Shown here: in pieces, positions 40,614 to 43,642 of the stretch
Position numbering within the stretch: the first letter of the stretch is position 1
How the letters are laid out: every line of letters begins with the position of its first letter
NCBI RefSeq assembly: GCF_011745365.1
Contig: NW_024468917.1
Location: forward strand, 2,413,501 to 2,477,500
Reading direction: 5' to 3'
Source of the DNA: Cryphonectria parasitica EP155
Lineage: Eukaryota > Ascomycota > Sordariomycetes > Diaporthales > Cryphonectriaceae
DNA: 64,000 nucleotides
The notes under the pieces: generated by a model
The model's input: the letters and a program-made list of their open reading frames with translations, nothing else
The model's database searches: none
What the model was told of the DNA's origin: nothing
Made by a program: the position numbers and the translations under genes

Positions 40614-40705
40614 AGGTCGTGCGCGGACTCGAACCGCGGTTGCCGGAAAGTTCTAACCGTCGTACGAGTCAAAATCCGGAGTGATAACCTCTACACTACA
40701 CAACC
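40614..40705 (-). tRNA. tRNA-Gln (anticodon TTG) with a 20-nt intron
   Basis: The cloverleaf folds fully on the minus strand: acceptor GGTTGTG/CACGACC, D-arm TAGTGTAGAGGTTATCAC, anticodon stem CCGGA/TCCGG with loop TTTTGA-T and anticodon TTG at 34-36. The T-arm is CGCGG-TTCGAGT-CCGCG and the discriminator base is T. A 20-nt intron sits after position 37. The mature length of 72 nt plus 20 equals the 92 nt span. The CCA end is not encoded. Downstream on the minus strand come runs of T (two clusters within 25 bp), fitting RNA polymerase III termination. The A and B boxes are intact, so the gene looks functional. Confidence 0.93.
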
Positions 40706-41786: not shown

Positions 41787-42263
41787 CTACTCATCCTCAA
41801 ACAGACCACCGAGGACCTTCAGGGCAGTGCCGCCGACGGTCTCAATGTCGTGCAGGACCTCGGAGGAGCGCTGGGCGAGAGGAGCATCGCGGGTCTCGCT
41901 GCGCTTCAGGTCCTCGAGGGCACTCGCCGCCCAGGAGGCAACCTTGGGCAGAGCATTCTCGGCAACACCCTCAATATCGCTGACGATACCAGAGCGGGCA
42001 GCCAGAGGAGCATCCACGGTCTCGCTGCGCTTCAGGTCCTCAAAGGCATCCAGGGCCCAGGGCAGGACCTTGCCGGCAACACCCTCAATATCGCTGACGA
42101 TACCAGAGCGGGCAGCCAGAGGAGCATCCACGGTCTCGCTGCGCTTGAGGTCCTCAAAGGCATCCAGGGCCCATGGCAGGACCTTGCCGGCAACACCCTC
42201 AACCTCGCTGACAATGCCAGAGCGGGCGGCGAGGGGCGCATCGACGGTCTCGGTGCTGCGCTT
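41787..42263 (-). repeat. Family C repeat: four units of 114-126 bp
   Basis: Units begin at each KR from residue 437 onward. The two central units are almost identical (114 bp apart). The last two diverge, and the final unit ends with the protein. Confidence 0.85.
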
Positions 42264-43571
42264 CTCGGCGGCGTCGAGGGCATCAAGGCCCCAGGAGGCG
42301 ACCTTGGGGAGCACACTCTCGCCGACGCTCTCGACGTCGGACCAGAAGCCGGTGCGCTTAGCCACAGGGGCGTCGTAGGTCTCGGTCACATCGCGCAGGT
42401 CGATGCCAGCACCGCTGGCGGCACTCTTGACATCATCCCAGACACCAGAGAGGGCGTCCTCGCCGACGGTCTTGGCAGCACCACCAGCAAGGGACTTGGC
42501 AGCATCGCCCAGCAGAGAGCCGACACTACGGACGTAATGAGAGGGCTGGTCGTCACGCTTCAGGCCAATGTCGCTGGCGATGGCAGAGAGGCCATCCTCG
42601 CCAGCAGTCTTGGCCGCACCGCCAGCCAGGGCCTTGGCAGCATCACCCAGAAGGGAGCCGATGCCACGGACATAGTGCGAAGGCTGATCGTCGCGCTTCA
42701 GGCCAATATCGCTAGCGATGGCAGAGAGACCATCCTCACCAGCAGTCTTGGCCGCACCGCCAGCCAGAGCCTTGGCGGCGTCGCCCAGGAGAGAGCCGAG
42801 GCTGCGGACGTGCTGGGAGGGCTGGCCATCGCGCTTGGAGGTGACGTCGCTGTACAGGGTCTCGGCACCGTCAACGATGCCCGTGCCGATCTCGCTGCCG
42901 ATGCTGCCAGCCGCGCCGGTGAGGGCAGACTCGCCAGCCTTGAGCAGAGAGCTGCTCACCGACCTCTCCTCAGGGGTGGTGAAGAGGTCGCTCACACCGC
43001 GAACGTGGTAGGCAGGCTGATCCTCGCGCTTCAGGCCGATTTTGCTTGCGAGGCTCTTAACACCGTCGACAACCTCAGTGCCGATACCGCTGCCGGCACT
43101 GCTGGCAGCACCAGTCACGCCGGCACCGATGGCCTTGTCGAGGAGCGACTCGCCCTCCTTGGCGGCGTCCTCAGCAACGGTACCAACCACGGACCGCTCC
43201 TGCGGCATGGTGAAGAGATCGCTCACGCCACGGACGTGATAGGCAGGCTGGTCCTCGCGCTTCAGGCCGATCTTGCTGGCGAGGCTCTTGACGCCGTCGA
43301 CAACCTCAGTGCCGATACCACTGCCGGCACTGCTGGCAGCACCAGTCACGCCGGCACCGATGGCCTTGTCGAGAAGGGACTCACCCTCCTTGGCAGCATC
43401 CTCAGCGACGGTGGTGACGACTGATCGCTCTTGGTTGATGTCGAAAATGGGGAGGCTAAGGTCCAACTTGCCGTCGACGGGGCTGCTGAGAGACTGAACG
43501 GGAGCCGTCTGGGCAGTCTCCAGGTAAGCGATGGTGGCCAGGATGGCGGCGAGGATCTCGTTGGAACGCAT
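41787..43571 (-). CDS. Secreted tandem-repeat protein with ten Lys-Arg sites; putative Kex2-processed multi-peptide precursor
   Basis: A single exon codes for 594 residues. The N-terminus (MRSNEILAAILATIAYLETA) looks like a signal peptide, cleaved near Thr-Ala-Pro (22-24). The rest is three families of tandem repeats. Family A is two near-identical 77-residue units (47-123, 124-200) plus a degenerate third. Family B is two 46-residue units (256-301, 302-347) plus a degenerate third. Family C is four related units of about 38-42 residues (from about 437 to the end), each carrying VDAPLAAR followed by an amphipathic helix. Ten dibasic KR pairs occur (104/105, 181/182, 246/247, 292/293, 338/339, 405/406, 437/438, 476/477, 514/515, 556/557), one per unit, usually followed by Asp, Glu or Ser. 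This is the layout of Kex2-processed repeat proteins such as fungal repellents, dikaritin RiPP precursors and Ece1. No Cys is present, so it is not a hydrophobin. No UstY-like or other tailoring gene was seen nearby. Function is unknown. Confidence 0.85.
   Translation of the reverse strand: MRSNEILAAILATIAYLETAQTAPVQSLSSPVDGKLDLSLPIFDINQERSVVTTVAEDAAKEGESLLDKAIGAGVTGAASSAGSGIGTEVVDGVKSLASKIGLKREDQPAYHVRGVSDLFTMPQERSVVGTVAEDAAKEGESLLDKAIGAGVTGAASSAGSGIGTEVVDGVKSLASKIGLKREDQPAYHVRGVSDLFTTPEERSVSSSLLKAGESALTGAAGSIGSEIGTGIVDGAETLYSDVTSKRDGQPSQHVRSLGSLLGDAAKALAGGAAKTAGEDGLSAIASDIGLKRDDQPSHYVRGIGSLLGDAAKALAGGAAKTAGEDGLSAIASDIGLKRDDQPSHYVRSVGSLLGDAAKSLAGGAAKTVGEDALSGVWDDVKSAASGAGIDLRDVTETYDAPVAKRTGFWSDVESVGESVLPKVASWGLDALDAAEKRSTETVDAPLAARSGIVSEVEGVAGKVLPWALDAFEDLKRSETVDAPLAARSGIVSDIEGVAGKVLPWALDAFEDLKRSETVDAPLAARSGIVSDIEGVAENALPKVASWAASALEDLKRSETRDAPLAQRSSEVLHDIETVGGTALKVLGGLFEDE
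42531..42806 (-). repeat. Family B repeat: two 138-bp tandem units
   Basis: Units at 42806-42669 and 42668-42531 each encode a 46-residue block: SLLGDAAKALAGGAAKTAGE, then a short linker, then KRDDQPSHYVR. A third copy is degenerate. Confidence 0.88.
42972..43433 (-). repeat. Family A repeat: two 231-bp tandem units
   Basis: Unit 1 (43433-43203) and unit 2 (43202-42972) are nearly identical in DNA and protein, differing at only a few codons. A third, degenerate copy follows. The near-identity points to recent duplication or gene conversion. Confidence 0.88.
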
Positions 43572-43623
43572 ATTGAATGATTGGGTGGTGAGAGGAGATA
43601 GAAGAGACCGGCTCTAAACAATT

Positions 43624-43642
43624 ATGTATATAAAAATAAGGA
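43624..43642 (-). promoter_or_regulatory. Candidate TATA box of the repeat-protein gene
   Basis: On the minus strand the sequence TTATTTTTATATACAT lies about 55-70 bp upstream of the ATG at 43571. A close TATA and a short leader are typical of strongly induced fungal genes. Confidence 0.5.

What the first reader, a model, noticed from the sequence alone, without database searches (positions are those of the whole stretch)
41787..43571. Secreted three-family tandem-repeat protein with ten Kex2-type Lys-Arg sites
The sequence shows a signal peptide, no cysteine, and three repeat families (77, 46 and about 38 residues), each unit carrying one KR. Regularly spaced KR in a secreted fungal repeat protein is the known layout of Kex2-processed precursors (Ustilago Rep1 repellent, dikaritin and epichloecyclin RiPPs, Candida Ece1). 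Three different repeat families in one precursor is unusual and could release at least three kinds of peptide. That it is processed, and what the peptides do, is inference.
Basis: partly seen in the sequence, partly recalled or inferred. Interest (0 to 1): 0.78.

Follow-up and report, generated by a model that had tools for sequence, protein, structure and literature searches.

The report
Fungal precursor of many helical peptides
A fungal gene encodes a secreted-looking repeat protein that seems built to be cut into about eleven small helix-forming peptides of three kinds, a new example of a known type of fungal precursor whose peptides' job is untested.

Summary
Minus-strand ORF 41787-43571 encodes 594 aa with a signal-peptide-like start, no Cys, three repeat families and ten Lys-Arg (KR) sites; no other dibasic pair occurs. 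Repeat copies differ mostly at silent sites (dN/dS 0.05-0.14 in 7 of 8 partly overlapping comparisons), so selection has kept the peptide sequences. It fits the countable published criteria for a KEX2-processed repeat protein (KEP), and the genome holds a Kex2-like gene. Only one homologue was found (P0001, metagenomic). Cut after every Arg, both proteins fall into short spacers and long cores, and several core starts have Arg in both proteins although the preceding residue changes (HYVR here, SKR there). So single-Arg sites may be cut as well as KR. This is suggestive only: over whole sequences Arg is not clearly better conserved than other residues. Best reading: a KEP releasing about 11 anionic amphipathic helical peptides, perhaps forming a Rep1/Hum3-like surface coat. 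Secretion, processing and function are inferred. A dikaritin-type RiPP locus is disfavoured: none of 36 UstYa matches lies on this contig. More than one repeat type per KEP is published as common; three types were rare in one survey (2 of 1193). New member of a known kind.

The parts
41787..43571 (-). Coding sequence of the 594-aa precursor, including stop TAG; no intron needed
   Evidence: codon-position bias of changes between repeat copies supports this frame
43500..43571 (-). Signal-peptide-like N-terminus, residues 1-24 (cut site not determined)
   Evidence: hydrophobic 12-mer mean 2.5; 14 of the first 18 residues identical in P0001; SignalP not run
43425..43499 (-). Leader segment, residues 25-49, ends NQER
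43194..43424 (-). Family 1 unit 1 (77 aa, residues 50-126): core 54 aa, KR, spacers EDQPAYHVR + GVSDLFTMPQER
42963..43193 (-). Family 1 unit 2 (77 aa, residues 127-203)
   Evidence: dN 0.026, dS 0.585 against unit 1
42831..42962 (-). Diverged shorter family 1 core, residues 204-247, ends TSKR
42693..42830 (-). Family 2 unit 1 (46 aa, residues 248-293): spacer DGQPSQHVR, core 35 aa, KR
42555..42692 (-). Family 2 unit 2 (46 aa, residues 294-339): spacer DDQPSHYVR, core 35 aa, KR
   Evidence: dN 0.051, dS 0.696 against unit 1
42393..42554 (-). Family 2 unit 3 with diverged C-terminal half, ends IDLR without KR (residues 340-393)
42258..42392 (-). Bridge spacer DVTETYDAPVAKR (394-406) and first family 3 core with KR (407-438); this spacer ends in KR where later copies have AAR
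42141..42257 (-). Family 3 unit 1 (residues 439-477): spacer STETVDAPLAAR, core 25 aa, KR
42027..42140 (-). Family 3 unit 2 (residues 478-515)
   Evidence: dN 0.025, dS 0.398 against unit 1
41901..42026 (-). Family 3 unit 3 (residues 516-557), core 29 aa, KR
41790..41900 (-). C-terminal family 3 relative (residues 558-594), ends FEDE without KR

Best explanation
A secreted KEX2-processed repeat protein (KEP). The precursor enters the secretory pathway. Golgi Kex2 cuts after each KR and, possibly and less efficiently, after the single Arg that closes each spacer; a Kex1-type carboxypeptidase would then trim C-terminal basic residues. Products: about 11 amphipathic, anionic, mostly Gly/Ala-rich helical peptides of three kinds (about 54, 35 and 25-30 aa), with spacers attached or freed depending on the single-Arg cuts. 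My best guess at function is that the peptides are surface-active and coat hyphae or an interface, working like Ustilago Rep1/Hum3 peptides without being shown to be related to them (about 0.35 for that guess). Shown: ORF, repeats, sites, purifying selection between copies, helical periodicity, a Kex2-like gene in the genome. Inferred: secretion, cutting, trimming, the coat function.
For: 10 KR against 1.35 expected. dN/dS 0.05-0.14 in 7 of 8 copy-to-copy comparisons with dS 0.4-1.0 (some comparisons overlap, the eighth has too few changes). Fragments between KR fit the KEP counts. Splitting after every Arg gives alternating spacers and cores in both proteins. Several core starts coincide: NQER/PQER|SVV with ARR|SIG, HYVR|GIG with SKR|GWG, LAAR|SGI with LAAR|SSI. 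A review states that Kex2 takes P1 Arg with variable P2 and aliphatic P4 (PMC8528282, part 1 of 3 read); KEPs expressed in P. pastoris gave several products that appear to be cut after single Arg (PMC9769878, section read). Helical periodicity P<0.05 (uncorrected) in 7 of 8 non-redundant window cores and 7 of 7 of P0001; strand periodicity in 0 of 15. A kexin-like gene matches PDB kexin at E 3e-160; S10 carboxypeptidase matches exist. Rep1: peptides of 35-53 aa; Hum3: repeats of 31-36 aa, both amphipathic (PMC4617103 passages).
Against: Nothing shows that the gene is expressed or the protein secreted or cut. In the global alignment 7 of 15 Arg that face a residue are kept (47%), against 10 of 22 Lys and 163 of 429 positions overall (38%), so Arg is not clearly favoured. 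In a register test with 15-residue segments, Arg is found in front of the best match in 7 of 14 cases from P0001 to the window (Lys 4 of 22) but 8 of 24 the other way (Lys 4 of 21, Ser 28 of 63), so the signal is one-sided. Five of the 14 mature-region single Arg (YHVR, QHVR, HYVR) have neither an aliphatic P4 nor a listed preferred P2 (contexts). Family 2's KR after the core has no partner in P0001. Family 3 spacers are more alike between the two proteins (9 of 12, 7 of 12) than the cores (10 of 30, 9 of 25), which does not single out cores as the product. A Rep1-type coat is amyloid-like, whereas these cores show no strand periodicity. A stricter helix test reached P<0.05 in only 4 of 11 window and 4 of 8 P0001 cores. 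One homologue only.
Confidence: 0.7

Rival explanations
1. A membrane-active peptide precursor, working like Ece1/candidalysin: one or more helical cores permeabilise membranes of competitors or a host. (A rival to the coat function, not to the KEP processing.)
For: Similar layout of signal peptide plus KR-bounded peptides; Ece1 needs cuts on both sides of the active peptide and Kex1 trimming (PMC5784256 passages). Cores are amphipathic.
Against: All 11 window cores are net negative, -2 to -5 without the terminal KR. PDB sequence searches with two cores found no membrane peptide. [quoted passage not shown]
Confidence: 0.15
2. A signalling or pheromone-like precursor in which spacers or cores are ligands. 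(Also compatible with KEP processing.)
For: KEPs include alpha-type pheromones. An EDQPAYHVR/DGQPSQHVR/DDQPSHYVR spacer recurs five times, and family 3 spacers are alike in P0001 (9 of 12 and 7 of 12 aligned positions).
Against: The family 2 spacer is poorly matched in P0001 (4 of 11). No Ste13 XA/XP signature follows the ten KR. Cores of 25-54 aa exceed the 9-24 aa pheromone class.
Confidence: 0.12
3. An intact secreted helical repeat protein of the cell surface in which the basic pairs are incidental linkers.
For: Cores resemble LEA- or apolipoprotein-type amphipathic helices (recalled, not tested). KR is kept as a pair at only 2 of 7 shared Arg columns, and Arg is not clearly better conserved than other residues.
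Against: KR excess, KR recurring in different contexts at segment ends, and a Kex2-like gene in the genome.
Confidence: 0.18
4. Precursor of a dikaritin-type cyclic RiPP.
For: KEP layout; UstYa matches exist elsewhere in the genome.
Against: 0 of 36 UstYa matches on contig C9. Only one of 11 cores (204-245) contains Tyr (sequence). The 7 of 13 tested neighbouring ORFs with Pfam matches over cut-off are ordinary cellular types.
Confidence: 0.03

Closest known systems
Rep1 (repellent) and Hum3 of Ustilago maydis
   Same: Secreted precursors with amphipathic imperfect repeats of 31-55 aa separated by Kex2 sites; Rep1 yields small amphipathic peptides (PMC4617103 passages)
   Different: No sequence relation tested or claimed; here three repeat families, single Arg before most cores, helical rather than strand periodicity; Hum3 also has a hydrophobin domain, and no Pfam family passed its cut-off here
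Ece1 / candidalysin precursor of Candida albicans
   Same: Signal peptide and KR-separated peptides; both boundaries of the active peptide are needed (PMC5784256 passages)
   Different: Ece1 has seven KR and 271 aa; the present cores are anionic and repeated
KEPs as surveyed by Le Marquer 2019 and Umemura 2020
   Same: Signal-peptide-like start, at least three similar repeats between Kex2 sites, repeats under 100 aa
   Different: Three repeat families (three types in 2 of 1193 KEPs of one survey); single-Arg boundaries, which those surveys' cutting rules do not use
Kex2-processed pro-domain effectors (LxxR sites)
   Same: LAAR, LAQR and IDLR boundaries fit the expanded aliphatic-P4 motif (PMC8528282, part 1 of 3 read)
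   Different: There one pro-domain is removed; here candidate sites recur along the whole protein

Membership tests
KEX2-processed repeat protein (KEP) | Signal peptide by SignalP | not testable with these tools
   SignalP not available; hydrophobic N-terminus shared with P0001
KEX2-processed repeat protein (KEP) | At least 3 similar repeats of 8 aa or more between Kex2 sites, none over 100 aa | tested here: met
   Family 3 fragments of 39, 38 and 42 aa are 69-92% identical; the 11 fragments are 32-81 aa. Local alignment was used; the surveys' own pipelines were not rerun
KEX2-processed repeat protein (KEP) | Repeated motifs cover at least 15% of the protein | tested here: met
   3 x 38 of 594 is 19% for family 3 alone, hand count
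KEX2-processed repeat protein (KEP) | Peptides actually released | not testable with these tools
   needs mass spectrometry
Dikaritin-type RiPP precursor | UstYa (DUF3328) gene nearby | tested here: not met
   36 matches listed in the genome (39 candidates scored), 0 on contig C9
Rep1-type repellent | Homology to Rep1 | not tested
   Rep1 sequence was not fetched; no Pfam family over its cut-off
Rep1-type repellent | Surface-active amyloid-like fibrils | not testable with these tools
   helical but no strand periodicity speaks mildly against
Ascomycete alpha-pheromone precursor | Ste13 XA/XP signature after KR and 9-24 aa peptides | tested here: not met
   residues after the ten KR are ED, DG, DD, TG, ST or SE; cores 25-54 aa

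The most novel reading that the evidence does not exclude
A two-grade precursor: fast dibasic KR cuts release spacer-plus-core units, slower single-Arg cuts then free three kinds of helical peptide in fixed proportions that co-assemble into one surface material, with Arg reserved for cut sites while Lys is used inside the peptides.
Probability: 0.12. Interest if true: 0.75.

Novelty: new member of a known kind. Interest (0 to 1): 0.4.

Why it matters
The functions of KEP peptides are described as largely unknown (PMC9769878 abstract), and the two surveys cut in silico only at basic pairs. If single-Arg boundaries like those here are real cut sites, such surveys mispredict peptide ends, and peptidomics searches with the wrong ends can miss them. 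The silent-site bias between repeat copies is a simple sequence test of which precursor peptides are under selection.

Tried and rejected
Homologue searches: three protein searches, with the whole protein, residues 385-594 (no hit at E 0.01) and the two-sequence alignment. Each scored only about 8,000 candidates, presumably because Ala/Gly-rich words are common; only P0001 was found, so relatives may be missed. Own-genome paralogues: none listed besides this gene. Pfam and PDB matches of the precursor were below cut-off or above E 0.7 and were set aside; for P0001 the best PDB match was E 0.0053 over 34 residues of CpcN and was set aside as a short low-scoring stretch.

A resemblance of the P0001 core beginning GWGS to a fish antimicrobial peptide was recalled; PDB searches with that core and with a window core found no such peptide, so the lead was dropped.

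An earlier form of this report claimed that P1 Arg is the conserved element. Searches, made on checking, show that the support is weaker than that: hand-chosen unit pairs show it, whole-sequence counts barely do. The claim was toned down; the best explanation went from 0.75 to 0.70, the intact-protein rival from 0.13 to 0.18 and the novel case from 0.15 to 0.12.

The 524-aa antisense ORF (41850-43424 plus) was rejected as a codon-bias shadow: changes between family 1 copies fall 3, 2 and 23 times at positions 1, 2 and 3 of the minus-strand frame.

Species identification failed: the rRNA search did not complete. Calling it a filamentous ascomycete is inference (UstYa genes, a 43.8 Mb genome).

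Full report
What is there. The window lies on contig C9 of a 43.8 Mb, 17-contig genome. The minus-strand ORF 41787-43571 reads 594 aa from ATG to TAG. Residues 25-594 hold 32 Lys and 24 Arg; ten pairs are KR and none is KK, RR or RK. Ten thousand residue shuffles gave a mean of 1.35 KR and never ten. Because repeats copy their sites, this overstates independence, but KR occurs in different contexts (GLKR, TSKR, VAKR, AEKR and DLKR). There is no Cys, no glycosylation sequon and no hydrophobic stretch after the start likely to be an anchor. Of the first 18 residues, 14 are identical in the homologue.

Selection. Changes between repeat copies are mostly silent: family 1 copies have dS 0.585 and dN 0.026; family 2 copies 1/2 have 0.696 and 0.051; family 3 copies 1/2 have 0.398 and 0.025. 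Seven of eight comparisons give a ratio of 0.05 to 0.14; two pairs of comparisons overlap, and the eighth (family 3 units 2 and 3) has almost no changes and says nothing. The copies are therefore old and their amino-acid sequence has been held. In family 2, pair 1/2, three of nine spacer residues but two of 37 core residues differ; in pair 2/3 the spacer is unchanged and four of the first 23 core residues differ. Copy comparisons do not settle whether core or spacer is more constrained.

Unit plan. Cutting after every Arg gives short spacers (mostly 9 to 13 residues; family 1 has 9 and 12 in a row, and the last spacer is split 4 and 7) alternating with long cores. That no Arg lies inside a piece follows from the cutting; that the pieces alternate in this way does not. 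The 22 Lys that are not in KR lie within pieces. The only homologue, P0001 (475 aa, one contig of 2903 bases, E 6.5e-33), falls into similar pieces, including some with no counterpart here. In the global alignment seven mature-region Arg columns are shared (126, 256, 302, 406, 438, 450 and 477), and Lys precedes Arg in both proteins only at 438 and 477. Where the window has PQER, QHVR and HYVR, P0001 has ARR, SKR and SKR, though the P0001 segment after the last of these is not an evident core; where the window has VAKR, P0001 has VAR.

How strong is that? Not very. Of 24 window Arg, 7 face Arg, 9 a gap and 8 another residue; 7 of 15 aligned is 47%, against 10 of 22 for Lys and 163 of 429 overall. 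A register test, in which the 15 residues after each Arg seek their best ungapped match in the other protein, finds Arg in front in 7 of 14 cases from P0001 to the window (Lys 4 of 22) but in 8 of 24 the other way (Lys 4 of 21, Ser 28 of 63); segments of 12 and 20 residues give 8 and 7 of 14, and 8 and 9 of 24. Off-by-one matches count as failures there. So Arg in front of family 1, 2 and 3 cores is shared, but a general preference for keeping Arg is not established by one pair of proteins.

Could single Arg be cut? [quoted passage not shown] By hand count on the contexts, nine of 14 mature-region single Arg meet the P4 or P2 preference and the five HVR/YVR ones meet neither. In Coprinopsis KEPs expressed in Pichia several products appear to come from cuts after single Arg (PMC9769878, section read).

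Cores. Helical (90-105 degree) periodicity exceeds shuffles at P<0.05, uncorrected, in 7 of 8 window cores after leaving out three near-duplicates of 11, and in 7 of 7 P0001 cores after leaving out one of 8; the miss is residues 407-436 (P 0.108). Strand periodicity does so in 0 of 15. The harsher best-18-residue test reached P<0.05 in 4 of 11 and 4 of 8. All 11 window and 8 P0001 cores are net negative without KR. Between the two proteins, cores match at 30 of 62, 14 of 39, 16 of 56, 10 of 30 and 9 of 25 aligned positions; spacers at 9 of 16, 9 of 12, 7 of 12 and 4 of 11 (pairs chosen by hand). Spacers are thus not less conserved than cores.

Machinery and surroundings. The genome gives one proprotein-convertase P-domain match. 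The ORF there carries subtilase and P domains and matches PDB kexin at E 3e-160; an ORF just downstream holds a hydrophobic segment and a tail. A DPPIV-type match and 27 S10 carboxypeptidase matches (exon pieces) exist; which, if any, is Ste13 or Kex1 was not tested. UstYa gives 36 matches, none on C9. Thirteen of the 34 other ORFs listed went to Pfam: seven have matches over cut-off (Pex24p, Mcp5_PH, HAD, Ras, two SDR pieces, GST), six do not.

What it is. It fits the countable KEP criteria of the two surveys (PMC7329392 and PMC6339444, methods sections read; fragment identities); SignalP is untested and their pipelines were not rerun. [quoted passage not shown] the other found two types in 77 and three in 2 of 1193. 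By its rule of three similar fragments per motif only family 3 here clearly counts, so this protein might be scored there as having one or two types.

How it works, most likely. Secretion, Kex2 cutting at KR and perhaps at spacer-end Arg, trimming, and release of about 11 helical amphipathic peptides of three kinds. I give 0.70 to this processing model and about 0.35 to the further guess of a hyphal or interface coat like that of Rep1/Hum3, whose peptides or repeats are of similar size and amphipathic (PMC4617103 passages). Against the coat: Rep1 forms amyloid-like fibrils and these cores show no strand periodicity. A membrane-active role is possible, but the negative charge speaks against it. 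The functional rivals are compatible with the processing model.

Limits. One homologue, no expression or peptide data, an unidentified species and no structure model.

Noticed in passing
window 41850-43424, + strand: A 524-aa ORF lies antisense to the precursor; it appears to be a shadow of codon bias, since fourfold-degenerate codons of the precursor almost never end in A (0.01 against 0.06-0.21 in six compared ORFs).
   Followed up: yes
window 40614-40705, - strand: tRNA-Lys (anticodon TTT), 92 bases, about 1.1 kb downstream of the gene.
   Followed up: no
window 43622-43640: A TATA-like AT-rich stretch lies about 60 bases upstream of the start codon (by eye).
   Followed up: no
P0001 residues 25-67: The homologue's leader before its first KR holds its only two Cys; the window protein has none.
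   Followed up: no
P0001 residues 256-298: A Lys/His-rich, strongly positive segment (net +8) sits between anionic cores in the homologue; no counterpart was seen in the window protein.
   Followed up: no
G000 contigs C1-C4, C6-C8, C11: 36 UstYa matches (exon pieces), several clustered, for example C4:107844-114432 and C7:2271991-2278233, suggest RiPP-type clusters elsewhere in this genome.
   Followed up: no
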